64,000 nt of DNA from Nereocystis luetkeana (taxonomy: Eukaryota; Sar; Phaeophyceae; Laminariales; Laminariaceae), in contig JARUPZ010000024.1 of NCBI GenBank assembly GCA_031213475.1, positions 3,651,991-3,715,990 on the forward strand, given 5' to 3'. Position numbers and translations under genes: made by a program. The notes under the pieces were generated by a model. It saw only the letters and a program-made list of their open reading frames with translations, made no database searches and was not told where the DNA came from. Each line of letters opens with the position of its first letter. Positions within the stretch are counted from its first letter, which is position 1. This document shows, in pieces, positions 24,238-63,061 of this stretch.

Positions 24238-24432
24238 TTTTTTTTTTTTTTTTTTTTTCCATCCCATTCATTATCTTCGCCCATCTTCTTCTCTCTCTCC
24301 TTCCAACTCGTAACTCAGATCCGGGGTCACATAGCAGGCTCTTCTCCCCCCTTCCCGCTACGGTACGTGCCTTCATTTTTATCGCGAGAAGATTTCAGCC
24401 TTTTCTTCCCTCGTCGACTCGCATCGAATTGT
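24238..24432 (-). mobile_element. SINE family 1, copy f (headless, minus strand)
   Basis: Only the second module of the SINE is present, ending in a T-run at 24238-24260 (a poly(A) tail on the minus strand). The tRNA-like head and the first 35 or so bases of the body are missing. It interrupts the CAA-tailed repeat relative to the site at about 12462. Confidence 0.75.
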
Positions 24433-25049
24433 ACGTACGTGCGCGAACCTCACTTTTAGGCCTAATCTTCTAAGAAGAGCGAAGCGAGCCGTAAGTCGGA
24501 CTCGGAAATCGAGCGTAGCGAGGTATTAAGACGGCCGCAGGCCTAATTTTTTTGGACTAAGTCGCGCGAATTTTAATCGTCTTAATCCATATTTTGCGTC
24601 TTAGCGCGTCTTGGACTCGTCTTAGCGCGTCTTGGCGCGTCTTAGACTCGTCTTAGCGCGCCTTAGACACATCTTGGCACGTCTTACATTCGCCTTGGCA
24701 CGTCTTAGGTTCGTCTTGGCACGTCTTAGGTTCGTATATATATAGGCACGTCTAAGCTCTTGGCAGTACTAAAAAGCAAGAATTATGTCGAAAACTAAGA
24801 GTTAGCTACTTCAACGAGGCACGGGTACAGCAATACAGCACAACAACCACACAACAACGTAGAGCGCCCGGAAATACGGAAATAATCCAAGTATCATCAA
24901 GCTACCGGTACCTGATAAGTAAGTGCGATTATTACGTATATTGATGGACGAACATTATTATTATGTACCAGGTACCTCGTACTCCTACGTAGTAGTTCCT
25001 TGTTTGTTGGCATTTATTTGACGTCACGCACAGCAGTACATAATTGAAT

Positions 25050-25190
25050 TTGTTGTTGTTGTTGTTCTCACATTAACTCACAATTCAATGCAGTCCGTGG
25101 TCGCAGGACAGGCTCCAATAACTCTGGAGTGGAAGAAATACCTCGAGTAAAAACAGAGGCAAAAAACAAAAAACAAGCATACGCACTCCA
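25050..25190 (-). mobile_element. CAA-tailed repeat (family Q), short copy inside the hAT-like element
   Basis: Reverse orientation: starts TTGTTGTTGTTGTTCTCACA, the complement of the (AAC)n tail, and is 5'-truncated at a GTGGAGTGCGTATGC-like point. The second hAT-like copy lacks it (compare about 39880-39890), so it landed after the two copies separated. Confidence 0.75.
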
Positions 25191-26193
25191 CCATACCTGG
25201 TACCAGGTATCTATATAGATGTGTATTTGTTTGTACATTCATTCGTACATACGTGCCCGTATTCGAAGTGAAAGCTCCGAAATCGCATTGCGAATAGAAG
25301 GCACCAGGTACCTGGTTTTATTGCGTCGTTTGTTTTCTACGAGGACGAATATCATACCGTCAGCAGCCGTGGATACCAACAAACTCAGACATATTTTTTC
25401 ACGTATTAATAGTTTTAATAGTAGTATTACCATTATTATTATTTCTCTTGCCATCCGACAACGTGCAGCTTGATCTGTGATCTTCAACATGAATCACTCA
25501 TAACCTTCCCGAAAGAAGAAAACCTCGGAAACAAAAGGAAACCCATGCACCAAGTCTACCTCCCTTCCGTGCCAACTTTCAGCTTGTCTACTCTATAATT
25601 GATAACAACCTACGAAGCCACCAACTTAAAACAGAAAGTCTTGAGAGAATACAGCAGTAGTATTTGTCCTAAAGGATGTCGTTCAAAGAACGACACGTTG
25701 CTTCCGGTGGTGGTGATGCATCCGCGGTGTAAGCATACCAACGGATTTTGGGCAAACCACTACTAATAATATAACAATAATAACTGCCCTGCCCACCGAA
25801 CACAGAAAGAGAGCAGTTGTTGTCCTATTATGTTGGGCGTCCCAAATAAGGCATTATGTCACCTATACCTGGTATAGTATTATACTGATGTACCACGGTA
25901 TATAGCAATACTCGCAAAAATACAGAGAAAACGAACAGCAGGAGGATCGTAGTCGCCGTAAAGTATACCATCAGGATGCAATTCTGTTTTTGCAATACCA
26001 AGTACCTGGTACGAGTATATAATAAGACGTTAGCAACCAACACAATTTGAAACAAAAAACAGAGGTAGGTATAGGTAGCAGTATTCCTCAGGTAGTATGT
26101 CGAAAGAAATTGGAGTGGACCTTCCCCCAACCCAACTGCCACGTAGGGAGAGAGGATACAGATCATGTTTTTTTCATTAAAAAAAAAATAAGA

Positions 26194-26454
26194 ATGCCAT
26201 CCTCGAAAATACGGAGAACCGGGTTCGATGTCCCCGGTGCCAGGGAAGAGCGCATGGAGGCCCTAAAAAAGAAGGCTCGAAAGAAGCAAGCTGAAGCAGT
26301 CGATTCATCTGCCGTCCTCGCTGTGTTTCCACCTATTTCCACAGCTCGCTGTGGTCGTGTCGACCCCCTAAGACGCCTCGACCGGCGCCTGGTGCATTCT
26401 AAGACGAATCTAAGACGTGCTAAGACGAATCTAAACGTGCCAAGACGAATCTAA
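26194..26454 (+). CDS. Small conserved open frame in the hAT-like element (copy 1), function unknown
   Basis: 86 codons, starting MPSSKIRRTGFDVPGAREER, then a Lys/Arg-rich stretch and VDSSAVLAVFPPIS. The C-terminal third (RRLDRRLVHSKTNLRRAKTN) is simply the translation of the CTAAGACG subterminal repeats. The copy at 40704-40964 keeps the same frame with only four substitutions over about 235 bp by hand count, whereas flanking parts of the two copies show indels. It may be a first exon of a lost transposase, a captured host exon, or chance. I recognise no domain. Confidence 0.3.
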   Translation: MPSSKIRRTGFDVPGAREERMEALKKKARKKQAEAVDSSAVLAVFPPISTARCGRVDPLRRLDRRLVHSKTNLRRAKTNLNVPRRI

Positions 26455-26726
26455 GACGTGCCAAGACGCGATATTATATAGCGAGTAAGACGGGCCTCTC
26501 TCTGAGAAACGGATTAAAACGTATTTTAAGACACGTCTTAAAATATTCGACCTACTCACTTTTTTATGTTTAGTCTGAGAGGTGTACATGTGTTTCAGTT
26601 ATCGTGTGAAGTGTACTATTCTTTGCTTTTGTTTTATATTTTTTTCGAGGTATTCTTCCACTCCAGAATTATTGGAGTCTGTCCTGCGACCACGGACTGC
26701 ATTGTATTGTGGCGACGAGTTAAGAC

Positions 26727-27344: not shown

Positions 27345-29255
27345 GCAGTTCATCCGGGACGAGGAGGGCACGCTGCTAAGTAAGGGACAAGGTGCGCATT
27401 CTTGAACGGTGGGCGAGGTTTTTTCATCACCCTCCCGACCACGAAGTCGTCTAAGCTTGATCCAACCATCAGCGCCCTATTTCCACAACAACGGCCGTTG
27501 GCACCATCGCTTGGAGATGAACCGACCATGGAAGATATGACGGGAGGTAATTCGGGGTTGCCAAACTGGAAAGCGGTGGGACCAGACTCCCTTCCGGCCG
27601 AGTTACTGAAAATCGACCACCCGAGTTCATCCGGTATTTTCACAACCTACTTGTCCATGTGTGGAGAACGGGTGACGTCCCCCAGCAATGGAAAGATGCG
27701 ACCATTAAGGTCCTTCATATGAAGAAGGATCACTCTGATTGCAACAATTTCCGAAGTGTTTTCGCTTGTTGCCCATTCAGGTAAAGTTTTGCTGAAAATG
27801 GTCACGTCCCGCCTCAGTAACTACAGCGAGGCCAAAGGGATACTCCCCGAGAAAAAGTGCGGCTTTCGCCCAGCACGATCAACGGTCGACATGCTGTTCG
27901 TTGTGCGCCGATTGCAAGAACTCGGACGAGCTCGAAAACCCCCCCTGTACATGTATGTGCTTCATCGACCTGCAGAAAGCACATGACTCCGTCGACCGTG
28001 AGCTACTACTACTGTGGGTGGTGCTCGCACGCTTAGGCGTACCAAAGAAGATGCTTACCGCTATCCACCAGTTCCACGAAGGCATGCGCGCCCGCGTGTG
28101 TCCGGATGACGGCGAGCACTCGGAATAGTTCGACGCCACTCAGGGGCTGCGGCAAGGACGTGTCTTGTCAGCACTTACTTCTGTTCAATGCCTTCTTCGC
28201 TGCTGTGATACACACCGTGCCGATACGCTTCAGTGAAGACGCAGATTTTTTTAGGGACTTGGTTCACCTCGAGGAGGACCTCGGCGAGGACGGGGTGAAG
28301 GTTGACCGACTAACTTACGTACGGAGGGCCGTGTGGGGTATGCTATACGCGGACGATGCAGGCATTGTGTCCAAGTCGACGGAAGGCCTTGCGAAGATGA
28401 TGACCGTCATTGTGACCGTGTTCGAAGCGGCAGGTCTCACCGTATCCGAAAAGAAGATTGAGACCATGCCGCTGCGGACACCGAATCAGGCACCCCGGAC
28501 CTCACCGCTCGTCATCAAGGCAGCGGGACAGAGGTATAGGCAGGCGATGCAAGTTTTGTACCTGGGCGGCCTTGTCGTCGCAAGCGCTGACATTATGCCA
28601 GAGACCATGCGACGGATCGGACTCGCATGGGCATACTACAATCGGTTCAAACGGGAACTGTATGATATGGAGGATGCCCCGCTCACTCTAAAAGTGCGCA
28701 TATATATATGCTTAAGGCCGAGGTGATGGAGACTCTGCTGTACGGGTGCGTGACGTGGGCTCTTGGTCAGGAACACTTCGTTTAGCTCAGAACGGCACAC
28801 CACAAACTTCTCCTACGGGTTATTGGCTTCCAGCACCGGCAATGGACTGACCACCTCATGTCGTACGCCAAGGGACTCAAACGGGCACAATGCGAGAGCG
28901 TTGAGACGACCATCCGCAAACGACGTCTCCTCTTTGCGGCGGCCGTACAGCCGACGACCAATGAGCAACTGACCCGCCGGGTCCACGGAAAGCTCCCCCT
29001 TTCTGTTCGGAGTGGAGACGTTGTTATGGGCGAGGGCGGCTAAGAAGAGCAGGAAGTGGCACCGGGGGATCGTCGAAGCAGCGGACTGTTTCATGGCGAG
29101 GTGGCACAAGGACGAAGCACAGATACCGGCTGCGTCACGCATCAGAGGACGCCGAGAACGGCGACAAGCGGGGTGAGGAGCAGCTGCTCTGATACAGCTG
29201 TCGACGAATAAAACGAACGAAGTGATAGATCGGGTGGCTAGGTATCGGTTCGACT
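27345..29255 (+). pseudogene. LINE ORF2 (reverse transcriptase), decayed, plus strand
   Basis: Blocks in order: LPNWKAVGPDSLPAELLKID (about 27555-27610), [20 protein letters not shown] (about 27670-27720), [20 protein letters not shown] (about 27860-27915), [17 protein letters not shown] (about 27956-28005), WFDATQGLRQGRVLSALL (about 28130-28185), RAVWGMLYADDAGIVSKSTE (about 28325-28385), GLTVSEKKIETMPLRTPNQA (about 28435-28490) and VMETLLYGCVTWALGQEHF (about 28720-28785). The catalytic YADD motif is intact. Several single-base shifts and stops break the frame. No endonuclease domain is seen, so the 5' part is missing. It ends near 29255 with STNKTNEVIDRVARYRFD. It is better preserved than the minus-strand LINE. 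Confidence 0.85.
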
Positions 29256-29562: not shown

Positions 29563-30215
29563 TGTGTGTGTGCGTGTGTGTGTGTTCTTCACATTAAACA
29601 GTTCTTTCTACCCGTCGACATCCAGCACAACCAGTGTCCGTGCCGATTCTTCCATCCTAGAAGAGATACAAGTTCTGTGGTCACAAAGCTACGCCACAGT
29701 TGAGCACGCCCCGGTGGTTCAAGTGGTTAACCTCGAATTCCACTTGTTTGAGTCCTGGGTTCGAGCCCCAGGCGGGTCGGACTTTGACTTTATTTGCAAA
29801 AAAAAAAAAAAAAAAAAAAAAAGGATTCAATTGTTGAGAGCGACTTGCAGCGTGGGTAGACACAATTCGATGCGAGTCGACGAGGGAAGAAGAGGCTGAA
29901 ATCTTCTCGCGATAAAAATGAAGGCACGTACCGTAGCGGGAAGGGGGGAGAAGAGCCTGCTATGTGACCCCGGATCTGAGTTACGAGTTGGAAGGAGAGA
30001 GAGAAGAAGATGTGCGAAGATAATTAATGGGATGAGCAAAAAAAAAAAAAAAAAAAAAAACAGAGATACTACGTTGCCACGTGTGCAGTGTGAACTGCAG
30101 TGGGCAATGCAAAGCCATGTCATCATACTAGATACGACAGGCACGACATACGCAATCTATGAAATAGTGAAACGAAAAGAAACAATCAAAGAGAAAACAA
30201 AAACAAGGTAGACAA
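29563..30215 (+). repeat. Repeat family S, copy A, split by a SINE
   Basis: Starts with a (GT)n run and TTCTTCACATTAAAC, then CCCGTCGACATCCAGCACAA, GTGGTCACAAAGCTACGCCA and (after the SINE) GAGATACTACGTTGCCACGT, CATACGCAATCTATGAAATA and an AAAC-rich end. The unbroken copy at 31672-31953 shows the original join at CCACAGAGATAC. Function and class are unknown. Confidence 0.75.
29700..30059 (+). mobile_element. SINE family 1, copy a (full length)
   Basis: A tRNA-like head, CCCCGGTGGTTCAAGTGG, carries an A-box-like TGGTTCAAGTGG. The T-arm is perfect: stem CTGGG/CCCAG around loop TTCGAGC, which holds the B box GGTTCGAGCCC. After GACTTTATTTGC come a run of 20-odd A residues, a 200-bp body beginning GGATTCAATTGTTGAGAGCG, and a final poly(A). 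It is flanked by ACAG (29696-29699, 30060-30063) and inserted into repeat S. The internal A run suggests a two-part element. Confidence 0.85.
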
Positions 30216-30714
30216 ATCGAAAAAGAAAAAGAAGAAAAATGAAAGCAAAATCTAAGAGAAACAATCTGTCGTGCCCCCCCCCCGCAGGCGAGGTGGCCAA
30301 CATTCGAAAAAGAACGAGCTGGAAAAAAGAAGAAATAACAAAAAACACCACTGCTTGTGAACAGAGTAAGACAAAGAACCAAGGAGAAAGTAACAAGGAA
30401 AAATAACAAAGGGGAAATAACAGGCAGACCAAAGCCCAAAGCACCTTCCAGGTGGCGGCAGCAGCTTGTGGTACGAGTAGTATAGCCAGATTCTCCCTGC
30501 TAATCCGCCTGGTACCTTGCTACCCAGACTGCCGTCTCCGCCCTGCGTTCGTCAACTATGCCCAGCCCCTTGGCGTCAGACAATAGGAGCCGAGCAGAGC
30601 AGGTTCGTCTTCCAACCACGCCACACGGCTCCTTGAGTACGGCTTATCAATCAGGAAAGGAAGAGGAAGAGAAAAAATGAAATGAAAATCACGGAGAGTC
30701 AGCGCAAGAAAGAA
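30216..30714. other. A-rich non-coding stretch
   Basis: An A/G-rich extension of repeat S (AGAAAAAGAAGAAAAAT-like), then about 75 bp (30556-30632, CTATGCCCAGCCCCTTGGCG) repeated at 41062-41136. No gene seen. Confidence 0.5.
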
Positions 30715-31193
30715 ATGCACTACCTCGGCCATCGTGCGCTTGCCAACCGGTCGTAGAAACTTGATCGGAACTTTATCCCAACGCGTCGAGCTCCGCTCCT
30801 ACTATGTTCCTCCTCTTCGACCCTGGGTATCCCATCTTTCGTTATTTTGGCACCCATTTTGTTTTTTTTTAAGTCTTCTGGGACTTAAAAAAACGAGATG
30901 TGAAAACGGAGGTATCGGGATCTCTACTTCTAATTTCTACAATTTGACCAATAAAACTCACGTACTCTTGAGTTCTGTATTTCGTTTTTTCATTTCGTTT
31001 TTTTTTCGTTTATTTTGCCCTCGAAAAGACCAGCCCAGAGGACTTGAAAAAAACGAAACGGGTGCCAAATAAACGAAATATGGGATACCCAGGGTCGAAG
31101 AGGAACATAGGAGGAGCTCGACGCGTTGGGATAAAGTTCCGATAAAGTTTCTACGACCGGTTGGCAAGCGCACGATGGCCGAGGTAGTGCATG
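30715..31193. repeat. Long near-perfect inverted repeat (hairpin)
   Basis: The left arm, about 30715-30886, and right arm, about 31028-31193, are reverse complements with few mismatches (for example TGCCAACCGGTCGTAGAAAC on the left, GTTTCTACGACCGGTTGGCA on the right). The arms are about 170 bp and the spacer about 140 bp. A transcript of this region would fold into a long double-stranded hairpin. Both inner edges hold AAAACGA/TCGTTTT-rich sequence. Confidence 0.9.
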
Positions 31194-31671
31194 TGGCTGC
31201 CACGCGGCTCGTCTGCTCGCGGCGCGAGCACAGATGGGTAGGGAATCACCATGGGGTGCCCTCGTAAGAAACCGGGGGATCAGGAAGTGGCTGTGGCGGT
31301 ATATTTTTCGATATGAGTCCCACACAACATTCAAACGTCTGCCATCGAACTGCGATGGCCGATACACAAGTTCTAGAGCACTCCGTGGGGAGCGGGTTGG
31401 ACCACGAGAACCGCCTGCTGTGGAGGGTGCCTTACGTATGCGAGTTGTGTCTATCCACCGTCGCTGTCGAGCGCTATCGCCGGGAACCACGTGCTGTGGC
31501 GGTTGAGTCATTCCGAGAAATTGCACCGCGTAAAAATTCGACTCGGCTTCTTATTTTTGTTTCGTTTTTTTTTCGTTTTTGTTTGCCCTCGTTAGGACTC
31601 AACCTGATGTTTTTTGCGAAAAACGAAAGTCTGTTCGTTTTATTTCGTTTTTTTTTCGTTTATTTTGCCCA

Positions 31672-31953
31672 GTGTGTGTGTGTGTGTGTTCTTCACATTA
31701 AACCGTTCTTTCTACCCGTCGACATCCAGCACAACCAGTGTCCGTGCCGATTCTTCCATCCTAGAAGAGATACAAGTTCTGTGGTCACAAAGCTACGCCA
31801 CAGAGATACTACGTTGCCACGTGTGCAGTGTGAACTGCAGTGGGCAATGCAAAGCCATGTCATCATACTAGATACGACAGGCACGACATACGCAATCTAT
31901 GAAATAGTGAAACGAAAAGAAACAATCAAAGAGAAAACAAAAACAAGGTAGAC
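31672..31953 (+). repeat. Repeat family S, copy B (uninterrupted)
   Basis: The cleanest copy: (GT)n, TTCTTCACATTAAACCG, through CCACAGAGATACTACG, to AAACAAAAACAAGGTAGACAA. It serves as the empty site for the SINE in copy A. Confidence 0.8.
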
Positions 31954-32545
31954 AAGTCTTCGATAAGACCGGCCGTGTCGTTGTGTTCTCGTACCCGGTA
32001 CGCTGACACTTCACCTGCTTGACACTTGAATTTGCGATTCAGTTTTATTTTTGGTCTTCCTCTGTCTCATCACAGTCTGTGACCACATAATCAGTCAGTA
32101 TTTCCCTAGGATCAGGACGGATAGGGAATCAGGACGGACACTGACTGGGTGCACTGGTGAAGCTGGGTAGAAAGGGCCAACAACAACAACAACAGCATTG
32201 TTGCGCATACGTGGCTGACTTCTGCCGCTGCTGCTGCTCTACAGCAGTGCAGTCTACAGGTAGGTACGTGTCCTCTGAGAGGCGTCAGCCAAATGCCTGG
32301 GCTCTTAGTCTCTAGGCCCGAGCCCACGCCCGCCGACTGTAGTTAGGCCACTGCGAGATGCACCGACAGTGCGCCGGGCTCGCAGTAACGTCCCTATAAA
32401 GCTGTCACCCAAGTGGGTCATCGGATTATCGAATCGATTTTTTTCCTGCTGCAGTAAATCCTTGTCAGATACTCGTATGGAGCACAAAATGAATGCCAAA
32501 CAAACCCCTTGTACCACTTGCGGACTTATACGTACCTGTCAGAGT
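31954..32545. other. Intergenic sequence with CAA and CAG microsatellite stubs
   Basis: Contains (CAA)4 at about 32179 and short GCTGCTGCTG runs. There is no recognisable gene, although frames of 60-130 codons exist on both strands. Confidence 0.4.
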
Positions 32546-32548
32546 AAT

Positions 32549-32717
32549 GTGTGTGTGTGTTCTTTCTACCCGTCGACATCCAGCACAACCAGTGTCCGTG
32601 CCGATTCTTCAATCCTAGAAGAGATACAAGTTCTGTGGTCACAAAGCTACGCCACAGAGATACTACGTTGCCACGTGTGCAGTGTGAACTGCAGTGGGCA
32701 ATGCAAAGCCATGTCAT
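32549..32717 (+). repeat. Repeat family S, copy C (truncated)
   Basis: From the (GT)n run to AAAGCCATGTCATC, nearly identical to copy B. The 3' A-rich part is missing. Confidence 0.8.
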
Positions 32718-32743
32718 CTGTAATGCGGACGATCCGATACGGG

Positions 32744-33138
32744 TTGTTGTTGTTGTTGTTCTCACATTAACTCTGACGAAGGAGTTGTGGTCACACAAAG
32801 GTGCTGGAGCCCTAGGAAGATCCGAAAAACCACAAAAATCGAAATTCCGCTGCCTAAAAATCCCCGGGACGAAGAAAGCGCACACAAGATAAAACCAATA
32901 TTGTGAAAAACTGAACTAACATGGCCGCGGGTAAATCCTCTCAACTATAACATAGAGTATCCCCGTTCCCACCACTAACCAAGTAGTGGTTGCTGACTAC
33001 AGCGGCTTCTGTCTGGAGTGCTGCCCGCACCGTACAAAACGCACGGCAGTCGTGAACACGAAAGAAGAAGACACCTATACCTGCTACCTGGAGTGCTGTC
33101 ATAGCGAAGACTCGCGGATAATATAATTGCACTCACAG
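32744..33138 (-). mobile_element. Repeat family P, copy 1 (CAA-tailed, minus strand)
   Basis: Its left edge, TTGTTGTTGTTCTCACATTA ACTC, is the complement of a GAGTTAATGTGAGAACAACAA tail, the same tail that ends family Q. It continues with GACGAAGGAG, GTGCTGGAGCCCTAGGAAGA and CATGGCCGCGGGTAAATCCT to about 33130. Other copies: 35487-35880, 41147-42120, and a fragment at 34491-34571. Confidence 0.7.
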
Positions 33139-33292
33139 AGGACCTTTAACAATCTGGGAGAAGGGATCTTTAGGTTAGTAGGCTGTTCAGGTGCTTTGGT
33201 TCCTGTCGGGATCAAGGTACTGGCCCAACGCTACTCATTTTTCAAGTAAAAAACATCCCTGAAATCCCTTCTCCCCGATTCCTAAACCTACT
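33139..33292. mobile_element. Mutator-like MITE, short copy without telomeric DNA
   Basis: 154 bp, reverse orientation relative to 12817-13138. It has the same ends (AGGACCTTTAACAATCTGGG and GATTCCTAAACCTACT). The internal junction GGCCAGTACC / AACGCTACTC marks where the longer copy has about 168 extra bases. No 9-bp duplication is visible here. Confidence 0.7.
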
Positions 33293-33362
33293 GTACTTGG
33301 AGAGTGGAAGAGGGGGAGGAGGGAGGGAGGAATCATTTTATTTATTTTTTTGATACCCTGGT

Positions 33363-33704
33363 ATTTTTTTTGCTCATCGCATTTATTATCTTCGCCCATC
33401 TTCTTCTCTCTCTGCGTCCAACTCGTAACTAAGATCCGGGGTCACATAGCAGGCTCTTCTACCCCCTTCCCGCTACGGTACGTGCCTTCATTTTTATCGC
33501 GAGAAGATTTCAGCATTTTCTTCCCTCGTCGATTCGCATCGAATTGTGCCTACCCACGCTGCAAGGCGTTCTCAACAATTGATTTTTTTTTTATTTTTTT
33601 TTTTGCAAATATAGTCAAATGTCCGACCGACCTGGGGCTCGAACCCAGGACTCGAACACAAGTAGAATTCGAGGTTTACCACTTGAACCACCGGGCGACC
33701 GGCT
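33363..33704 (-). mobile_element. SINE family 1, copy e (minus strand)
   Basis: On the minus strand it runs from the head (CGCCCGGTGGTTCAAGTGG, 33702 leftwards) through the T-arm CTGGG-TTCGAGC-CCCAG, an A-rich linker and the body, to the poly(A) tail at about 33363. The head A-box region is complete. No target duplication was settled. Confidence 0.8.
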
Positions 33705-33713
33705 ACATTTGCA

Positions 33714-33906
33714 TTGGGTGTGTGTGTGTTCTTCACATTAAACCGTTCTTTCTACCCGTCGACATCCAGCACAACCAGTGTCCGTGCCGATTGTTCAATC
33801 CTAGAAGAGATACAAGTTCTGTGGTCACAAAGCTACGCCACAGAGATACTACGTTGCCACGTGTGCAGTGTGAACTGCAGTGGGCAAAGCAAAGCCATGT
33901 CATCAT
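33714..33906 (+). repeat. Repeat family S, copy D (truncated)
   Basis: GT-run through AAAGCCATGTCATCATA, directly joined to the start of the CAA-tailed repeat at 33907. Confidence 0.8.
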
Positions 33907-34490
33907 AGAAAGGGGGACGAGGGGGAATGGCGGGGGGGGGGAGGGGAGGCGGTCTGCCCAACAGACTGAAGCCTGGTTATGGCCATCATCGTCATGATGC
34001 ACTCCTTTCTTTGGGACCCAAGTAATTAGCATGGTGCCATCTGGGCAACTTTGCGTGTCTGTATGCTCCAGTGCCTGGCTTTGGTATTTTCTTTCCCCCC
34101 CGCCCGTGATTATCGCTTTTTTGTCCCTTCTTTGTTTTCATTTTTCTTTCATTCCCGTTTGTACCTCTTTGTGTCTTTGTTAGTATGGTCCGTTTTGCCT
34201 TGCCTTTTTTTCGCGTTTTGCTATCTGCGTCTGTTTTAGTTTTGTTTTTGTTTTTGTTTTGCTTAGCTTCATCTTCTTTTTTTAGGTTTTTGTCTGCTAT
34301 TAATAGTCTCCTTTTTGCTTCCCTGGTGTCCGCAGTGGTGGAGTGCGTATGCCTGTTTTTTTTTATTTATTTATTTTTTGCCTCTGTTTTTACTTGAGGT
34401 ATTTCTTCCACTCCAGAGTTATTGGAGCCTGTCCTGCGACCACGGACTGCATTGAATTGTGAGTTAATGTGAGAACAACAACAACAACAA
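33907..34490 (+). mobile_element. CAA-tailed repeat (family Q), near-complete uninterrupted copy
   Basis: G-rich start, GGAGGCGGTCTGCCCAACAG, then GCATGGTGCCATCTGGGCAA, a pyrimidine-rich middle, TCCTGCGACCACGGACTGCA and (AAC)5. About 580 bp and no coding potential. It provides the empty site for the Harbinger-like MITE at 23293. It is followed at once by a family P fragment in plus orientation (34491-34571) and a family S fragment (34575-34647). Confidence 0.75.
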
Positions 34491-34649
34491 CCTAGGGCTC
34501 CAGCACCTTTGTGTGACCACGGTCTCCTTCGTCAGAGATTTAATGTGAGAACAACAACAACAACAACAACTATAAACGACAGGCACGACATACGCAATTT
34601 ATGAAATAGTGAAACGAAAAGAAACAATCAAAGAGAAAACAAAAACAGT

Positions 34650-35486
34650 ACACGGGTACAACAACCCGTGTTGATCCAATTGGTCAACTTCTCTCGTACA
34701 TAAAAAACACCTTCCAGGAATTTTCTTTTACCTTGATAATACTCCGCTGTAAGAAGCTGACGTATTTCATAATTTTATGAAACCTTTCACCTGTAACATC
34801 TCGTCGAGATCTACGCCAGGAACAGTATTTTATATTTTATAGCATAAACTTGGGGAGTATCCACAAAAAAATACGCTTGGCGAAAACTTGCCAATCCTAA
34901 TTTTCAAAAACCTGTTAGTTCGGCAAAAGTTTTGTGCCAAATACATGTGGTTAACCACATACCTGGTACTTATTATCCCAAGAAGACAACCCACGACGCC
35001 CACTTTGTACTTTACTACTGGTACACGTCTTCACGTTTCTTGGCCAGGAAAACGAACACCAGATTGGGCGCTCCAAAGGGCCACACCGACGCATCATATT
35101 ACATATCTGCCTGATTCCAAGTTCCACAGACTGGAAACCTGGAACTACCAAGTTTAGGTGAGTCATTCTCCAAAGTTTGTGCGCAACACACCAATTAGTT
35201 ACTCGTACCGGGTACTAGCTGGTACCTGGTACCTGGTACTGGTACATATTATTGTAGGTTGCGAAAGACAACAAACCCCAAACCCCGACTTCTCCGTTGC
35301 TCCTTGCTGCTGCCAGTCGTTCTACAGCATCTGCAACCTATACGCGTACAGCAGTACAACAGCATTATGTACCATATCAGGTACTGGTAGGTAATACTGT
35401 ATGAGTCCACGTTCAGATCACATGCCTCTTTCTTGGGCACCGAACCAGCAAACCCCTTGTTTTTTCTATTTTTTGCTTTTATATTG
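34650..35486. other. Intergenic DNA with GGTACC/TACCAGG words
   Basis: No gene is supported. A cluster of GGTACCTGGTACC-type words lies at 35217-35247; this partly palindromic word recurs across the window (for example 25195, 37950, 40512). Confidence 0.4.
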
Positions 35487-35880
35487 TTGTTGTTGTTGTT
35501 CTCACATTAACTCTCTGACGAAGGAGTCAGTTGGTCACACAAAGGTGCTGGAGCCCTAGGAAGATCCGAAAAACAAAAAAAAACGAAAATTCGGCTGCCT
35601 CAAAATACACGAGACGGAAAAAGCGCACACAAGATAAAACCAATGTGCAAAACTGAACTAACATGGGCGCGGGTATATCCTCTCAACTATAATATAGAAG
35701 AGTACCCCCGTTCCCACCACTAACCAACTCGTGGCTGCTGACTACAGCGGATGCTGTCTGAAGTGCTGCCTGCACCGTATGAAACGCACGGTAGTCGTGA
35801 AAACGAAAGAGAAACACACCTGCCTGCTATCTGGGGTGCTGTCAGAGTGAAGACTCGCGGATATGCAGTCAAAAAAGGTG
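35487..35880 (-). mobile_element. Repeat family P, copy 2 (minus strand)
   Basis: Co-linear with 32744-33138 from the TTGTTGTTGTTG edge through GTGCTGGAGCCCTAGGAAGA and ACATGGGCGCGGGTATATCC to GAAGACTCGCGGATA. It reads straight through the two places where the copy at 41147 carries SINEs. Confidence 0.75.
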
Positions 35881-36121
35881 CAATCGAACCTTACTACCAC
35901 ACGAATATCAACGATCGCCATAATCTCTTCCTGGACTGTCTGACACAAAAAAGTGCAGCACAGTTATGATACCACGTCCCTGATAATTGCGTAGGTTATT
36001 CCCCATGAAGGGTATACAACTCGTTAAACTACAAAGACCAGCAGTGACGACGTTTATAACAAGTACCGGTAGATACTATTCTGCCTCGTGAAAAACAATA
36101 CCAGGAAAAAACAAACTATGA

Positions 36122-36735
36122 CTGCTTCTCTCGTGATGATAGTGTGCGCGCAAATCATGGGTCTCCATGCACCGTCTTCCTGCCGCTCTTCATGGCCGCC
36201 TCATCGCCTTGGCCCAATCCACCCGCTCCTTTGCGCGTGCACTCGTTGCCATTCCCTTCCAGTCGTTTCCCTTCCTCCGTCATCCTGAAAAACAAAATGC
36301 TCCTCGCACTTGCGGTTCTGATCTGGAAAATAAAAATTCTCGCGCAGGGGGAGGTCAATCCGTCTCTTCCCCGCACGTCGACGCTCAGTCTCCCTCCTCC
36401 CTCGTCGTCGAATCCAGCCTCCTACCGGCGCAATAGACTGTGCCGTAGTGTGGCCTGTGGTGGCGCCTGCCTCCGCGCACGGACACCCCGATTGAGCATT
36501 GCTGCTCTGCCGCAGCTGCCTAAAAAGACGCGCGAATCGTAGGTGTCCGTGCCTGACGCACCACGTACGACCCAACTCTACTGCCGCCTGAGCCTCGCGG
36601 CCACAGGCAGCAGCGAGAAGGTATCACTCCTTGAGGGTGAGTCCGGCCTTACACCCGCCAGAAAGACCTACCCCACTCGCTATTAGCCGGATAGGGCATG
36701 CCTCGCAGCATTCCTTGCCGAGGCAGCGAGGGGAA
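36122..36735. repeat. Dispersed repeat of about 615 bp, copy 1
   Basis: Pairs with 42848-43465 in the same orientation. It shares phrases such as CGCTCCTTTGCGCGTGCACT, GACTGTGCCGTAGTGTGG, GCGCGAATCGTAGGTGTC and GGGTGAGTCCGGCCTTACAC, with many substitutions and indels. Short frames on both strands are not consistently kept between the copies, so coding is doubtful. Confidence 0.65.
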
Positions 36736-36769
36736 CGGAGTAACGTACCTGGTATTCGTTTTCTCTTTC

Positions 36770-37050
36770 GATTTGTCTTCTTCGTTTTATTTTTTCTCGT
36801 TGAATGTTTCCTTTCTTTTTTCTATTTCATAGAATGTGTATGTCGTACCTGTCATATATATAGTATGAAGACATGGCATTGCATTGCCCACTGCGGTGCT
36901 TACAGCATACGAGGCAACGTAGTATCTCTGTGGCGTAGCTTTGTGACCACAGAACTTGTATCTCTACTAGGATTGACGAATCGGCACGGACACTGATTGT
37001 GCTGGATGTCGACGGGTAGAAAGAACTGTCTAGTGTGGAGAACACGCACA
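36770..37050 (-). repeat. Repeat family S, copy E (minus strand)
   Basis: The complement of family S from the A-rich 3' end (at 36770) to TTCTTTCTACCCGTCGACAT and the GTGTTC edge near 37050. About 85-90% similar by eye to copy B. Confidence 0.7.
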
Positions 37051-37455
37051 ACCTAATGCAACCCGGACTCGACGTGCGCTATTAATAGATACCCTAGTAG
37101 CCTCAGCTTTATTCAAGCTTGGAATGCGCCGCCGCAGGCATTATATCACCACTGGCGGGTTGCTCCGTGGCCCACCCAGCGTGCATACCACTGCACGTTA
37201 GGCAGTCTTCATATATATTTCGGGTGCGAGGTGTTCCTCAAGAACAAAGTAAAAACGGACGCGGCACCACGGCCCACAATTTCCCACGTGTTGCGTCGTG
37301 ATAAACAATTTTGTTACACTAAACACAGGGTAATACCTGCAAAGGTTTGATTGAGGTGGTGTTCAAGCTGAACGAGCCGAGTTCCCCACCCCTTGAATTA
37401 ATTCCCCCCGCAGTCTGCAGTATCGATTGGAATGTCACCTATCGCTGTAGTTATG
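37051..37455. other. Intergenic DNA, nothing recognised
   Basis: No repeat partner or gene was found by eye in this stretch. Confidence 0.4.
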
Positions 37456-38011
37456 TGTGTGTCTGTGTTCTTCACATGAATGATACCGTTCTTCTACCCA
37501 TCTACAACACAACCAAGGACCGTGCCAATTCTTCAATCCTACAGGCCGGCGTCCCCGGTGGCTTGGTAGGTGGTCCGCGTGCCTATCAATATCAATTTCG
37601 TGGGTTCAAGTCCCACCGAGTGCACGGTCGTGGCTGTGTCTTGCAAACAAAAAAATGTTTTTCGCGGAATGCGCGAGAGCTTGAGTTAGCTACACTCGAT
37701 GAAAATCGACCAGCAGTGGGAATGCTGAACCCTGTGCGCGACAAAAAATAAAGGCACGTGCCGGGGGGGGAAAGGGTGGACACCTGTGTCCTCGGCTTGT
37801 CCAGAAGCTCGTTGAAAATTAAACCTCCCACGAGTGAGGCTGGAAAATAAAAGTGACGTTGAAAAAAAAAAAAAAAAGCATGTGATGTGTTGTCACAAAA
37901 CTGCGCCTCAGAGATACCACGTACACCTACATCGTTCCCTACTTTTGATAGGTACCAGGTACCAGGTATGCAGCAGAGTAGGGACAACGCAATGCCATGT
38001 CGCCATATGCA
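37456..38011 (+). repeat. Repeat family S, diverged copy G, split by a SINE
   Basis: The left part, 37456-37541 (TTCTTCACATGAATGATACC ... TCAATCCTACA), and right part, 37880-38011 (GTTGTCACAAAACTGCGCCT, CAGAGATACCACGT ... AATGCCATGTCGCCAT), are family S with several changes. SINE family 2 lies between and SINE family 1 copy b abuts its right end. Confidence 0.6.
37542..37876 (+). mobile_element. SINE family 2, copy a
   Basis: A tRNA-like head with a good A box (TGGCTTGGTAGG) and B box (GGTTCAAGTCC). The T-arm is perfect: stem GTGGG/CCCAC around TTCAAGT. The body has GTGGGAATGCTGAACCCTGT and AAAGGCACGTGCCG, and the tail is a run of 15 or so A residues at 37861-37876. It is distinct from family 1 in head and most of the body, but AAGGCACGTRCCG is shared by both bodies. 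Confidence 0.75.
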
Positions 38012-38334
38012 GCCGGTCGCCCCGGTGGTTCAAGTGGTTAACCTCGAATTCTACTTGATTGAGTCCTGGGTTCGAGCCCTAGGAGGGTCGGACTTTGACT
38101 TTATTTGCAAAAAAAAAAAAGGGATTCAATTGTTGAGAGCGCCTTGCAGCGTGGGTAGGCACAATTCGATGCGAGTCGACGAGGGAAGAAAAGGCTGAAA
38201 TCTTCTCGCGATAAAAATGGAGGCACGTACCGTAGCGGGAAGGGGGGAGAAGAGCCTGCTATGTGACCCCGGATCTGAGTTACGAGTTGGAAGGAGAGAG
38301 AGAAGAAGATGTGCGAAGATGATGAATGGGATGG

Positions 38335-38362
<28 letters not shown>
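38012..38362 (+). mobile_element. SINE family 1, copy b
   Basis: Head GGTCGCCCCGGTGGTTCAAG, T-arm CTGGG-TTCGAGC-CCTAG (one mismatch), linker of 12 A, body, and a final A run of about 29. It is flanked by ATGCA (38007-38011 and 38363-38367). Confidence 0.85.
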
Positions 38363-38365
<3 letters not shown>

Positions 38366-38483
38366 CATGGATGTACAGCAGCAGCAGTACGCGCAGAGTG
38401 TTTGCTCTTCGCACACTCTTCTAAATATCGGTGCAAACAGTATTTTCAAAAATGTGTTGATAGTAGTATTGCTAACGCATGTA

Positions 38484-38588
38484 TTACGGGGGGCCATAGT
38501 TAACAGGACCAAATATTGTTCGTAAAAATGGTTAAAAATATAGGTTTTTATGTATACGATAGGTCCTGTTAACTAGGGTCCCCCGTAA
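38484..38588. mobile_element. Mariner-like MITE, copy 3
   Basis: 105 bp, TTACGGGGGGCCATAGTTAA at the left and TTAACTAGGGTCCCCCGTAA at the right, flanked by TA (38482-38483, 38589-38590). The centre is AT-rich. Confidence 0.85.
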
Positions 38589-38590
38589 TA

Positions 38591-39338
38591 GTAGCCTGCA
38601 CGAACATATGAAGAGAGGGGCATACACTTCTGTATGATATCCGTGACCGTGTGGCCATACAGAAGCAGTCCGAGTCCGACCGAAACACAAAAGCCCACAA
38701 GCTTGCCAACTTGTTCGTGTCGTGAGGTGTTACGGAATACCTGGTACGATCTGCTTCAAGATGAAGGACCCGAAAATCCTTGCCACGGCTGCCGATTGCT
38801 ATTCCAGTTGAATAAACTGTCAGCATATGGACGTGGACATCCATATCTATTGTGATGTGCAGTCACTTCACGCGACCTTACTAAGAGTATCATATGATAG
38901 GAGCTTTAGATGCGGAGAAATACGATATGTGGCGAAACTTGAGTTTGTTCTTTCTTCCAGACGCACCACTGTTGTATTCGACTTATCTCTATCATACTGA
39001 TCGTAACGCAGGGTACCTAGTCTACCACAATACCTCGTAGGTAGCAGGTAACGTTCCATGAGTGCGCTACATAGAACGTTGCTGGGACATTGCTAGGAAC
39101 GGTTCACGGAACCTTGACGGGCTGCTGTAAAATAAACCTGCCCGTAGCATGGGCATTGTCTCGTGATCAGGTGATGGCAGCGCCCACCTCGATCATTCCT
39201 CTTCCATCTCTCTTCTTCCTTTCCTTTCCAGCTCCTCTCTTCTTCCTTTCCATCTCCTCTTCCATTCCTTTCCTTTCCTCTCTTCTTCTCCTTTCCTCTT
39301 CTCCTCTTGATCAATGTTTGGCCAATGTCGCCCCTGTG
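38591..39338. other. Intergenic DNA with a pyrimidine-rich microsatellite
   Basis: A TCTTCCTTTCC-type CT-rich run lies at about 39195-39310. No gene is supported. Confidence 0.45.
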
Positions 39339-41063
39339 TAGGCCTAATCTTCTAAGACGAGCGAAGCGAGCCGTAAGTCGGACTGGGAAATCGAGCGTAG
39401 CGAGGGGCAGACCGAAAAATTTTCGACTAAGTCGCGCGAATTTCAATCGTCTTAATCCATATTTTGCGTCTTAGCGCGTCTTAGCGCGTCTTAGACTCGT
39501 CTTAGCGCGCCTTAGACACGTCTTGGCACGTCTTATATTCGTCTTGGCACGTCTTAGGTTCGTCTTGGCACGTCTTGGGTTCGCACGTCTAAGCTCTTGG
39601 CAGTACTAAAGCAAGAATTATGTCGAAAACTAAGAGTTAGCTACTTCAACGAGGCACGGGTACAGCAATATAGCACAGCAACCACACAACAACGTAGAGC
39701 GCCAGGAAATACGGCAATAATCCAAGTATCATCAAGCTACCGGTACCTGATAAGTGCGATTATTACGTATATTGATGGACGAAACAGTATTATTACGTAT
39801 CAGGTACCTGGTACTCCTACGTATTAATAGTAGGTCCTTGTTTGTTGGCATTTGACGTCACGCACAGCAGTACATAATTGAATACTAGGTATCTATATAG
39901 ATGTGGATTTGTTTGTACATTCATTCGTACATACGTGCCCATATTCGAAGTGCAAGCTCCGAAATCGCATTGCGAATAGAAGGCACCAGGTACCTGGTTT
40001 CATTGCGTCGTTTGTTTTCTCACAACGACGAATATCATGCCGTCAGCAGCCGTGGATACAAACACACTCAGACATAGTTTTTCACGTATTAATAGTGTTG
40101 TTAGTAGTATTATTAATATTGATAACAACCTACGAAGCCACCAACTTAAAACAGAAAGTCTTCAGAGAAAACAGCAGTATTTGTCCTAAAAGATGTCGTT
40201 CAAAGAACGACACGTGGCTACCGGTGGTAGTGATGCATCCGCGGTGTAAGCATACCAACAGATTTTGCGCAAACCACTACCAATATTATAGCACTAATAA
40301 CTGCCCTGCCCACCGAACACAGAAAGAGAGCAGTTAGTTGTTGTCCTATTATGTTGGGCGTCCCAAATAAGGCATTATGTCACCTATATAGTATTATACT
40401 GATGTACCACGGTATATAGCAATACTCGCCAAAATACAGAGAACACGAACAGCAGGAGAGTAGTCGCCGTAAAGTATACCATCAGGATGCAATTCTGTTT
40501 TTGCAATACCAAGTACCTGGTACCATTATATATTACGACGTTAGCAACCAACACAATTTGGAACAAAAAACAGAGGTATAGGTAGCAGTATTCCTCAGGT
40601 AGAATGTCGAAATAAATTGGAGAGGACCTTCCCCCAACCCAACTGCCAAGTAGGGAGAGAGGATACAGATCATGTTTTTTTTTTCATTGTAAAAAAAATA
40701 AGAATGCCATCCTCGAAAATACGGAGAACCGGGTTCGATGTCCCCGGTGCCAGGGAAGAGCGCATGGAGGCCCGAAAAAAGAAGGTTCGAAAGAAGCAAG
40801 CTGAAGCAGTCGATTCATCTGCCGTCCTCGCTGTGTTTCCACCTATTTCCACAGCTCGCTGTGGTCGTGTCGACCCGCTAAGACGCCTCGACCGGCGCCT
40901 GGTCCATTCTAAGACGAATCTAAGACGTGCTGAGACGAATCTAAACGTGCCAAGACGAATGTAAGACGTGCCAAGACGCGATATTATATAGCGAGTAAGA
41001 CGGGCCTCTCTCTGAGAAACGGATTAAGACGTATTTCAAGACACGTCTTAGAAGATTGGACTA
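39339..41063. mobile_element. hAT-like non-autonomous transposon, copy 2
   Basis: 1725 bp, co-linear with 24457-26554. Ends TAGGCCTAATCTTCTAAGAC and, reverse complement, TAGTCCAATCTTCTAAGACG. Subterminal CGTCTTAG arrays sit at about 39465-39590 and the complements at 40880-40985. It lacks the CAA-tailed insert and about 150 bp present in copy 1 (25480-25600). No exact 8-bp duplication flanks it; its right flank (41062-41136) is itself a repeat also found at 30556-30632, so one end may have been rearranged. Confidence 0.75.
40704..40964 (+). CDS. Small conserved open frame in the hAT-like element (copy 2), function unknown
   Basis: The counterpart of 26194-26454: MPSSKIRRTGFDVPGAREER, then MEARKKKVRKKQAEAVDSSA. 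It differs from copy 1 by two amino-acid changes in the N-terminal two thirds. It ends in translated subterminal repeats. See copy 1 for the alternatives. Confidence 0.3.
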   Translation: MPSSKIRRTGFDVPGAREERMEARKKKVRKKQAEAVDSSAVLAVFPPISTARCGRVDPLRRLDRRLVHSKTNLRRAETNLNVPRRM

Positions 41064-41288
41064 TGCCCAGCCCCTTGGCGTCAGCCAATACGAAACGAGC
41101 AGAGCAGGTTCGTCTTCCAACCACGCCACACGGCTATATATACCTGGTACTGACGAAGGAGTCCGTGGTCACACAAAGTCGCTGGAGCCATATTAATAGG
41201 AAGATCCAAAGAATCACAAAAAATCGAAATTCGGCTGCCTGAAAAAATACACGAGACGAAGAAAGCGCACACGAGATAAAACCAATGT

Positions 41289-41633
41289 TGCCCCTGTGGT
41301 TCAAGTTGTCAACCTCGAATTCTACATGTGTTTGAGTCCTGGGTTCGAGCCCCAGGTGGGTCGGACATTTGACTTCATTTGCAAAAATAAAAATAAAAAA
41401 GGATTCAATTGTTGAGAGCGCTTCGCAGCGTGGGTAGGCACAATTCGATGCGAGTCGACGTAGGAAGAAAAGGCTGAAATCTTCTCGCGATAAAAATAAA
41501 GGCACGTACCGTAGCGAAGGGGGTAGAAGAGCCTGATATGTGACCCCGGATCTGAGTTACGAGTTGGAAGGAGAGAGAGGTAGAAGGAGATGTGCGAAGA
41601 TAATAAATATATGAGCAAAAAAAAAAAAAGTGC
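41289..41633 (+). mobile_element. SINE family 1, copy c
   Basis: Full length, with a perfect 10-bp target duplication AAACCAATGT (41279-41288, 41634-41643). The T-arm CTGGG-TTCGAGC-CCCAG is intact, while the A box is slightly altered (CTGTGGTTCAAGTTG). The A-rich linker is AAAAATAAAAATAAAAAA, and the 3' end is poly(A) plus GTGC. Confidence 0.9.
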
Positions 41634-41673
41634 AAACCAATGTGCAAACTAAACCAACATGGCCGCGGGATCC

Positions 41674-42014
41674 GGTCGCCCCGGTGGTTCAAGTGGTTAA
41701 CCTCGAATTCTACTTGTTGGTGTCCTGGGTTCGAGCCCCAGGTGGGTCGGAATTTGACTTTATTTGCAAACATAAAAAAGGATTCAATTGTTGAGAGCGC
41801 CTTGCAGCGTGGGTAGGCACAGTTCGATGCGAGTCGACGAGGGAAGAAAAGGCTGAAATATTCTCGCGTTTAAAATGAAGGCACGTACCGTAGCGGGAAG
41901 GGGGGAGAAGAGCCTGCTATGTGGCCCCGGATCTGAGTTACGAGTTGGAAGGAGAGAGAGAAGAAGATGTGCGAAGATAATGAATGGGATGAGAAAAATA
42001 AATAAATAAAAATA
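41674..42014 (+). mobile_element. SINE family 1, copy d
   Basis: Full length: head GGTCGCCCCGGTGGTTCAAG, T-arm intact, body, and a 3' end of AAAAATAAATAAATAAAAAT. It is flanked by ATCC (41670-41673, 42015-42018), a single copy of which exists at the matching point of the two uninterrupted family P copies. Confidence 0.85.
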
Positions 42015-42339
42015 ATCCTCTCAACTACCAGGCATAACATAACAGAGTATCCCCGTTCCCACCACTAACCAAGTTATGGCTCTGCTGATATTGTCGTATG
42101 GGTCATATTACAGCACTGCTGTGCACAAACACGGCAGTTCGTCCGCCCCACCCCGTGTCGAGGTGGTCTCAGCTTTGGTAGGGCAAAGATGATTTTATGT
42201 CTTGCAGTCGATCCCGCGAGGATCTTCGAGAAACGTCAAAGCTGGCAACGAGGGGGGGTGCCAGAATAGATGGTCTCGGCGCTCCCGCGGTCGCGAACAA
42301 ACGAAGCCCGTGGTGACCCTTTGCGGGACCAAGCGGAGC

Positions 42340-42588
42340 CCGTGGTACCTATAACAGGCTTATGTTTTTTGTCGCGCATAGGGTTCAGCATTCCCACTGC
42401 TCGTCGATTTTTATCGAGTGTTTTGTCATTTATAACTCACGCTCTTCTCGCGCTTTCGTACTCATTTTATTTGTTGTGAAAAAAATGGATATTTCGTACG
42501 AATATGCACTCGGTGGTATTTGAACCCCTTGAACTGATTATATTTAGAGTATGCACGCGAACCACCAAGCCACCGGGGACAGCGACTA
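42340..42588 (-). mobile_element. SINE family 2, copy b (minus strand)
   Basis: The minus strand reads GTCCCCGGTGGCTTGGTGGT (A box), GGGGTTCAAATACC (B-box region, T-arm changed) and GTGGGAATGCTGAACCCTAT, co-linear with 37542-37770. The 3' part beyond 42340 differs from copy a and its end is unclear. It is inserted next to a family S fragment (42588-42717, minus strand). Confidence 0.65.
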
Positions 42589-42717
42589 CTGCTGTGGCGT
42601 AGTTTTTTCCCACATAACTTATATATTTCTAGTATTCAACAATAAGCACGTACTGGTTGTGCTGGATGTCGACGGGTATAAATACAACGGTTTTGATGTA
42701 AGGAGCACACAACAATG
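42588..42717 (-). repeat. Repeat family S, copy H (minus strand fragment)
   Basis: Contains GTGGCGTAGTTTTTTCCCAC and TGTGCTGGATGTCGACGGGT, complements of the 5' half of family S, with more divergence than the other copies. Confidence 0.6.
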
Positions 42718-61919: not shown

Positions 61920-62450
61920 AACCCGGTACATCACCACCCCTAGATATCACCAGCAGCAGCAGCAACAGCAGCAGCCGCAGCAGCAGCATCAGCAGTATCC
62001 GCAGCAGCAGCGGTATCAGCAGCAACCACAGCAGCAGCAGCAGTATCATCAACAGCAGCAGCAACAACCCCAGCAACAGCAGTACCAGCAGCAGCAGCAT
62101 CGTCCCCGTCAGCATGATAGCAACCGGGGAGGAGCTTCGCCGGGGGGGACTACCGGCCCCAAATGGCGTTGAGATGCCGTGGCCTGCAGGTACCGTTGGG
62201 ATGACTCCGGTCCCGACCCCTTCGGTACGGGAGGGGCGGTCCCGCCCATGGGTTGGGTACCTACCGAGCCACCACCAGGGACAATGCCCCCTATACCCCC
62301 GCCGCCCGTAATGACTCCGGCAGGCTGGGGTCTCCCGCCGAGCAACACCCAACTGAGGAGCAAGGGGGTCTGCTTTCGGTGTGGCAAACACGGCCACTAA
62401 CGTCGCAGCTTGCCCGGTAGCCGCCCCGCAGATGAACGTCGCGGTCCCGA
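61920..62450 (+). pseudogene. Copia Gag C-terminus: poly-Gln and broken zinc knuckle
   Basis: 61951-62170 encodes a Gln-rich stretch (PRYHQQQQQQQQPQQQHQQY type) ending at a stop. In another frame 62179-62400 has a Pro-rich linker and SKGVCFRCGKHGH, then a stop right after the His. Skipping one base gives NVAAC, which supplies the missing Cys of a CX2CX4HX4C knuckle. So a single-base shift breaks the zinc knuckle. Confidence 0.65.
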
Positions 62451-63061
62451 GTACTGCTGCCCCTCCCCCTCAACAGATGTACTACGGAGGTGGCTGGCAG
62501 CAGGAGACGCCCTACGGCAGTGGTGGGTATACCTCAGCCGGAGCTTTCCCGTCACAACAACCCTCCTCGAGCACTTTCCCTTCCCCTGGCCCAGCGAACA
62601 ACGGCAACCCTACGCCTACGTTCGACCCGCACCTCCTTACCGCGCAGTTTGCGCACCAAGGCAAGAGTATTTTTAGCGACGATTTGTTTTGGGCTAGTGG
62701 GAGGGAAGAGTGGGTAGCGGATTCGGCAACATTTCACGTAACTGCTAACCCCTTTGGTATGGTAGGCTGTTACCCCCCTCCCCCCGGTAAGAGTAGTTTG
62801 GTCGTCGGTGACATGAGGTCACTGAAGGTCGAGTACGTCGGACAGATTCCGATGGTAAAGCACAGCGCGCAGTGTGATGTTCGAGTTAGGTGTTTGGATG
62901 TAGCCTACGTGCCCGGTGTTCGGTTCAACCTGTTTTCACTTCACGCAGTAATGCTGAAATGCCCGGTGACTTTAGATTCCCAGGGAGCTCACTTGTTGGA
63001 TGGGCAATTGTCTTTTATGCGAAAGGACGCAGGTTCGTACGTAGACTCCAGCGGACTGTAG
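62450..63061 (+). pseudogene. Copia protease region
   Basis: This frame, open from 62381, contains GREEWVADSATFHVTANPFG (about 62700), the position of the aspartic protease active site. The usual D-[ST]-G-A reads D-S-A-T here. It continues with LDVAYVPGVRFNLFSLHAVM, the typical protease C-terminus. It stops at 63061, and a -1 frame change is needed to enter the integrase. Confidence 0.7.

What the first reader, a model, noticed from the sequence alone, without database searches (positions are those of the whole stretch)
29700..42014. A two-part tRNA-headed SINE family with readable empty sites
Six copies (29700, 33363, 38012, 41289, 41674 and headless 24238) share a head with Pol III A/B boxes and an intact T-arm, an internal A-run of variable length, a 200-bp body and a second poly(A). 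The internal A-run suggests a tRNA-SINE fused to a second poly(A)-ended module. Copies a, c and d can be compared with uninterrupted paralogues of their targets (31.7, 32.8, 35.5 kb), giving target duplications of 4-10 bp.
Basis: partly seen in the sequence, partly recalled or inferred. Interest (0 to 1): 0.75.

Follow-up and report, generated by a model that had tools for sequence, protein, structure and literature searches.

The report
tRNA-headed SINE superfamily with shared core
The six repeats are real copies of a short parasitic DNA element, headed by a worn-down tRNA gene, that occurs thousands of times in this genome and shares its middle part with differently built relatives.

Summary
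Five full copies and one headless copy of a ~345-bp element lie at the stated places. In the window's own 465-Mb genome a 23-base core word occurs 6,691 times and a head word 5,085 times, reversed controls 0. Flanks differ between copies, heads are tRNA-like with A and B boxes, tails are poly(A): a tRNA-derived SINE.

The internal "poly(A)" is mostly an inherited, T-interrupted linker: 25 of 33 parsed copies begin AAAAAT, 4 are pure A. Short target duplications are a minority: 9 of 34 copies have at least 4 bp at the expected place, against 10.8% of mismatched pairs.

This resembles the central-domain SINE superfamilies described from animals. Whether the heads were exchanged or merely diverged is open. 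Host identity, Pol III transcription and the partner LINE are untested. New member of a known kind, probably an undescribed SINE superfamily.

The parts
29700..30060 (+). family 1 copy a; 5' end TTGAGCAC is a variant shared with L008; target repeat ACAG
29700..29779 (+). tRNA-related head of copy a (A box near 29714-29725, B box near 29757-29768)
   Evidence: box motifs recalled, counted
29798..29822 (+). A-rich linker of copy a (pure A here; T-interrupted in most genome copies)
29863..29936 (+). core of the shared central domain in copy a
33364..33703 (-). family 1 copy b; head called tRNA-Arg(tct) by ARAGORN at default
38012..38363 (+). family 1 copy c
41289..41629 (+). family 1 copy d; 10-bp repeat AAACCAATGT on both sides, GTGC after the tail
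41674..42015 (+). family 1 copy e
24238..24436 (-). family 1 copy f, 5'-truncated just before the core
37546..37877 (+). family 2 SINE: other tRNA-like head, short A-rich linker, shared core, poly(A) tail
37692..37765 (+). shared core in family 2
42365..42585 (-). family 2 SINE, older copy broken after the core

Best explanation
A tRNA-derived SINE superfamily. Family 1 (~345 bp) has a worn tRNA head with an internal Pol III promoter, an A-rich linker, a ~200-bp body and a poly(A) tail. Copies are thought to be transcribed by Pol III from the head, then reverse transcribed and inserted by the enzymes of an unidentified LINE that accepts a poly(A) tail. Shown: anatomy, copy number, dispersal with different flanks, variable tails, 5' truncation. 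Inferred: transcription, the LINE and poly(A) recognition. The middle of the body is a core of roughly 75-95 nt that recurs in at least one other abundant family and in older elements with other heads and tails; it works like the central domains of animal SINE superfamilies. Whether sharing arose by exchange of heads and tails or by plain divergence of one lineage is not settled. What the core does is unknown; the best guess is an RNA structure of two adjacent hairpins that helps retroposition.
For: Genome-wide: 39 near-full-length matches at 89-100% identity, one headless and three fragments, from 40 scored of 803 candidates; exact words 5,085 (head) and 6,691 (core), controls 0. Flanks differ among 21 independent loci. 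Of 35 full copies, 32 have a strict A box and 34 a B box; ARAGORN and 33 of 35 as the threshold falls, and on seven window heads 1, 2, 3 and 7 against 0, 0, 0 and 42 of 2,100 shuffles. Core of families 1 and 2: 50 of 70 identical, 0 of 1,000 shuffles. Core model R1: eight window copies 71-102 bits, next place 11 bits; in 200 kb of the genome six family 1 copies plus cores at 71, 39, 38, 33, 20 and 14.7 bits.
Against: Rfam's tRNA model does not report the family 1 heads and finds only the T arm of family 2 at 13.3 bits, under its cut-off of 29. ARAGORN at -ps80 searches places in the whole window, so that setting is lax. Family 1 heads resemble 20 E. coli tRNAs only weakly (12 of 200 shuffles as good by best score, 1 of 200 by mean). 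Most copies lack a visible target duplication (25 of 34) and a looser test was not significant (216 of 2,000). No LINE with the same 3' end was found in the window. The hairpins are weakly supported: RNAalifold's covariation term is about nil, and in 13 sequences the pairs with two-sided change are no more than in shuffles (346 of 500).
Confidence: 0.85

Rival explanations
1. Fusion or dimeric SINE: a simple tRNA SINE with its own poly(A) was joined to a second module (possibly itself tRNA-related), and the internal A-run is the fossil first tail.
For: A-rich linker between head and body in both families. Three of five 5'-truncated family 1 copies begin inside the linker (L033, L056; C23). The first 75 bases of the family 1 body resemble E. 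coli tRNAs about as well as the head does (3 of 200 shuffles by best score, 1 of 200 by mean).
Against: 25 of 33 linkers begin AAAAAT and two lengths dominate, so the run is inherited. The matching stretch of family 2 is not tRNA-like (156 of 200 shuffles as good); ARAGORN calls nothing in the body down to -ps70 and Rfam lists no tRNA there. No head-only or body-only family was shown; 52 of 84 exact heads on part of contig C1 have an exact core 118-149 bp on, and the rest can be explained by mutation.
Confidence: 0.1
2. A DNA element or segmental duplication that spread this sequence, not retroposition.
For: Nine of the 30 fetched loci (L015-L023) share flanks in two groups, so some copies were multiplied inside a larger unit. 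Several window copies sit in or beside repeat T.
Against: The remaining loci have different flanks and tail lengths; there are 5'-truncated copies and 3' poly(A); over all held loci 4 of 39 copies touch T against 4.05% of random points.
Confidence: 0.02
3. A retroposed family of some other RNA (for example a Pol II transcript that contained a tRNA-like stretch) and not a Pol III SINE.
For: No transcription data; heads score low with Rfam's tRNA model; short or absent target duplications.
Against: Two families both begin at the tRNA-like head and both keep A and B boxes.
Confidence: 0.03

Closest known systems
tRNA-derived SINEs of fungi and oomycetes (AfuSINE2; Phytophthora infSINEs, as described in passages of PMC5063351)
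   Same: tRNA-related head with Pol III boxes, unrelated body, short target duplications (4-14 bp reported there).
   Different: Poly(A) tail here, A-rich linker inside, thousands of copies, and a core shared among families. No sequence comparison with them was made.
Central-domain SINE superfamilies of animals (V, CORE, Deu, Ceph, Nin and others; passages of PMC6887750 and PMC8010984)
   Same: A middle domain common to SINE families that differ elsewhere.
   Different: Their sequences were not at hand, so relation by sequence is untested; likeness is of build only.
RTEX-N1_Ec32 of Ectocarpus (PMC12477816; passages and part 1 of section 5)
   Same: Abundant short non-autonomous element thought to depend on a LINE; a possible SINE in a brown alga.
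   Different: About 600 bp, 3' end like RTE-X LINEs, origin of its 5' region undetermined; the present element is ~345 bp with a tRNA head and poly(A).
Dimeric SINEs with an A-rich middle (e.g. Alu; recalled)
   Same: A-rich stretch in the middle and a poly(A) tail.
   Different: No second unit of known origin was identified in the body.

Membership tests
tRNA-derived SINE | tRNA-related head with Pol III A and B boxes | tested here: met
   A box 32 of 35, B box 34 of 35; ARAGORN 1, 15, 19, 33 of 35 at falling thresholds; 7 of 7 window heads at -ps80 against 42 of 2,100 shuffles. Against: no Rfam tRNA match over its cut-off.
tRNA-derived SINE | Short, many copies, dispersed with different flanks | tested here: met
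   nine of 30 fetched loci share flanks in two groups
tRNA-derived SINE | Simple-sequence or poly(A) 3' tail of varying length | tested here: met
tRNA-derived SINE | Target-site duplications | tested here: inconclusive
   9 of 34 copies with at least 4 bp, control 10.8%, 3 of 600 re-pairings reach it (that script scored d and e as none); looser test 216 of 2,000; L034 shows loss of about five to seven target bases instead
tRNA-derived SINE | Partner LINE, 3' end shared or poly(A) recognised | not tested
   In the window BLAST of the copies found only SINE copies and a weak family 2 match besides A-runs; no genome search for LINE ends was made
tRNA-derived SINE | Pol III transcription | not testable with these tools
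   no expression data
Central-domain SINE superfamily | Core shared by families that differ in head or tail | tested here: met
   Core 0 of 1,000 shuffles; tail 765 of 1,000, 5' body 561 of 1,000; heads 2 of 1,000 and no more alike than 44% of pairs among 20 E. coli tRNAs
Central-domain SINE superfamily | Domain conserved across distant species | not testable with these tools
   no related eukaryote genome was at hand; patterns found nothing in viral contigs or genome contigs
Fused (dimeric) SINE | Internal A-run behaves as a former tail and free monomers exist | tested here: inconclusive
   Linker mostly inherited; no free monomer shown, none systematically sought

The most novel reading that the evidence does not exclude
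A SINE superfamily defined by a structured central domain (two adjacent hairpins, the first with a GNRA-type loop in most copies) exists outside animals, in an alga, and has spread under more than one tRNA head and more than one tail to tens of thousands of copies. SINEs would then have gained a shared middle domain independently in another lineage, perhaps because it does something in the RNA, such as holding the reverse transcriptase or easing exchange of modules.
Probability: 0.4. Interest if true: 0.6.

Novelty: new member of a known kind. Interest (0 to 1): 0.42.

Why it matters
If the host is a brown alga, this would be a clear Pol III-type SINE in a group where the most detailed survey that I read in part (Ectocarpus, PMC12477816) has no SINE row in its table and could only suspect one. 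Why some SINEs keep a conserved middle domain is an open question; families that share the core but not the tail would let it be tested in a second lineage. The copies are also ready insertion markers. Annotators may be filing thousands of such copies as unknown repeats (inference).

Tried and rejected
Second tRNA in the body: set out as a rival; not excluded, but not borne out by family 2, ARAGORN or Rfam.

Target preference for repeat T: a, b, c and both family 2 copies lie in or beside T, but over all held loci 4 of 39 copies touch T against 4.05% of random points; not significant as it stands.

Parent tRNA: a search of the own genome with the tRNA family returned 63 matches, all with the same 70.5 bits, on small contigs, presumably one organellar gene many times over, so the parent was not found. 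ARAGORN isotypes differ between copies (of 33 called: Val 23, Arg 3, Ser 3, four others one each).

Weak Rfam matches (InvR, ylbH, CrcZ; ylbH and others; Plastid-ycf2) lie far under their cut-offs and are taken as chance.

Searches for relatives elsewhere: patterns in viral contigs and genome contigs found none; the reverse transcriptase fragment found none in viral contigs.

Full report
What is there. The six copies are present at the stated places, 87-98% alike in pairs. Head and body words have 5 and 6 matches in the window, 0.24 and 0.00 expected. The element is about 345 bp: tRNA-related head (~80), a stretch ending TTTATTTGC, an A-rich linker, a ~200-bp body, poly(A).

Dispersal. The window lies in an assembly of 465,085,209 bases in 1,987 contigs, host unnamed. 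A search with copy a gave 803 first-look candidates, of which 40 were scored: 39 near-full-length matches at 89-100%, one headless, three fragments. Exact 23-base words: head T arm 2,569 + 2,516 = 5,085, core 3,328 + 3,363 = 6,691, reversed controls 0. On C1 up to 15.32 Mb, 84 exact heads and 98 exact cores form 52 pairs. Using that pairing rate for the whole genome gives about 10,800 family 1 copies (my arithmetic; it assumes that mutations strike the two words independently). A sample of 20 evenly placed 10-kb stretches on six contigs holds six family 1 copies, three of them in one stretch, which would be about 14,000 with wide error.

Head. Of 35 full copies in the held loci and the window, 32 have a strict A box and 34 a B box; identity to the window consensus is 91.6-98.2%, median 96.6. 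ARAGORN of 35 at default, 15 with -ps, 19 with -ps90, 33 with -ps80. On the seven window heads of both families it; on 2,100 shuffles 0, 0, 0 and 42; but at -ps80 it also searches places over the whole window. Rfam's tRNA model is silent on family 1 heads and gives family 2 a T arm of 13.3 bits. Likeness to 20 E. coli tRNAs is weak. I read the head as a worn tRNA with a kept promoter; isotype open.

Linker. It could be parsed in 33 of 35 copies; 25 begin AAAAAT, 4 are pure A. Head-to-core spacing peaks at 131 and 137 bp, fitting two inherited lengths. Tails are mostly pure A of varying length. The window misleads here: a and c have pure A-runs and b nearly so; only d begins AAAAAT.

Insertion sites. 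Copy a splits a repeat (T) whose uninterrupted copies show the target, with ACAG on both sides; d and e split another repeat. In a test of 34 copies, 9 have at least 4 bp, 5 at least 5, 3 at least 6 and 2 at least 7 at the expected place; mismatched pairs reach 4 bp in 10.8% of 1,122, and 3 of 600 re-pairings reach the observed count. That script scored d and e as none because of filler and an interrupted tail. A looser test on 25 elements, two of them family 2, was not significant (216 of 2,000). In L034 a copy sits inside a copy, and about five to seven target bases are missing. The integration thus leaves short duplications in a minority and sometimes small losses.

Truncation. Five 5'-truncated family 1 copies were seen: f, L030, L033, L056 and one on C23. 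Three of them begin inside the linker. Two further pieces at locus edges and the halves of the split copy in L034 were left out.

Second family and shared core. Window self-comparison showed a second family at 37546-37877 (+) and 42585-42365 (-): another tRNA-like head, a short A-rich linker, poly(A) in the first copy, and a core like that of family 1. By sections, family 1 consensus against the 37.5-kb copy: core 50 of 70 identical, 0 of 1,000 shuffles; head 2; linker 13; 3' body 5; 5' body 561; tail 765. Against the 42.5-kb copy: core 44 of 67, 0 of 1,000; head 8; linker 321; 5' body 549. The two heads score no better than 44% of pairs among 20 E. coli tRNAs, so they need not be one head; nor is that excluded. 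Core model R1 gives the eight window copies 71-102 bits, the next place 11. In the 200-kb sample it gives six family 1 copies and cores at 71, 39, 38, 33 and 20 bits, one at 14.7 bits (E 0.046) and one at 12.3 (E 0.27, not counted). Model R2, built with these six divergent cores, finds 12 in the sample; the six match by construction. Two more family 2 copies lie in loci fetched for family 1 (L011, L033). A word that mostly picks the family 2 core has 1,415 + 1,385 = 2,800 matches, control 0; of the 94 places listed with letters three have the family 1 form. The 12 cores in 200 kb would be some 28,000 per genome, with wide error.

Structure of the core. Two adjacent hairpins are possible, the first TCGAT-loop-RTCGA with GCGA or GAAA loops in most copies. 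On eight sequences 93.8% of cells pair; cells with two-sided change and the covariation score exceed all 500 shuffles, the number of such pairs does not (60 of 500); RNAalifold's covariation term is about nil. On 13 sequences 79.1% pair; cells reach it in 3 of 500 shuffles and the score in 1, pairs in 346. Suggestive only, since few independent lineages are involved.

Explanation. The simplest account is a Pol III-transcribed, LINE-mobilised SINE superfamily whose core is kept while heads and tails differ. Shown: anatomy, numbers, dispersal, truncation, shared core. Inferred: transcription, the LINE, recognition of poly(A), function of the core, and whether modules were exchanged or simply diverged.

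What is known. Central domains shared among SINE families are described from animals (passages of PMC6887750, and PMC8010984). tRNA SINEs are reported for the oomycete Phytophthora (cited in passages of PMC5063351). For brown algae: part 1 of section 5 and passages of PMC12477816 show no SINE row; passages of PMC7058681 and PMC6418280 give 0.003% and 0.0024% SINE. Eight literature searches (open-licence papers, capped listings) showed me no described brown-algal SINE family; that is not proof of absence.

Noticed in passing
L015-L023 (own genome: C1854, C1560, C1512, C1437, C1274, C1268, C1075, C373, C6): Nine family 1 copies share flanks in two groups (4 and 5 loci), most on small contigs: a SINE carried along in a larger repeated unit.
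   Followed up: partly
31672-31958, 32559-32718, 33715-33907, 36770-37050, parts at 29568-30218, 37454-37950 and 42592-42711: A separate repeat family (T), itself interrupted by SINEs at several points; its kind is unknown.
   Followed up: partly
24457-26551 and 39339-41061: A long, 86-94% identical duplicated stretch with internal short repeats.
   Followed up: no
28106-28726: Fragment of a LINE-type reverse transcriptase (PF00078 at 6.2e-05, under the curated cut-off) with 1,240 relatives, mostly unnamed environmental contigs.
   Followed up: partly
17968-19152 and 62381-63061: Copia-type gag with zinc knuckle, and a Pol_BBD-like piece just under its cut-off.
   Followed up: no
L055:4803-4893: A 74% match to the 3' body of family 1 at a place where the core models report nothing: perhaps a further divergent relative.
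   Followed up: no
L034:1341-1979: A family 1 SINE inserted into another family 1 SINE, with a small loss at the target.
   Followed up: yes
own genome, small contigs from C53 to C275: 63 tRNA matches with the same 70.5 bits, probably unplaced organellar contigs in the assembly.
   Followed up: no
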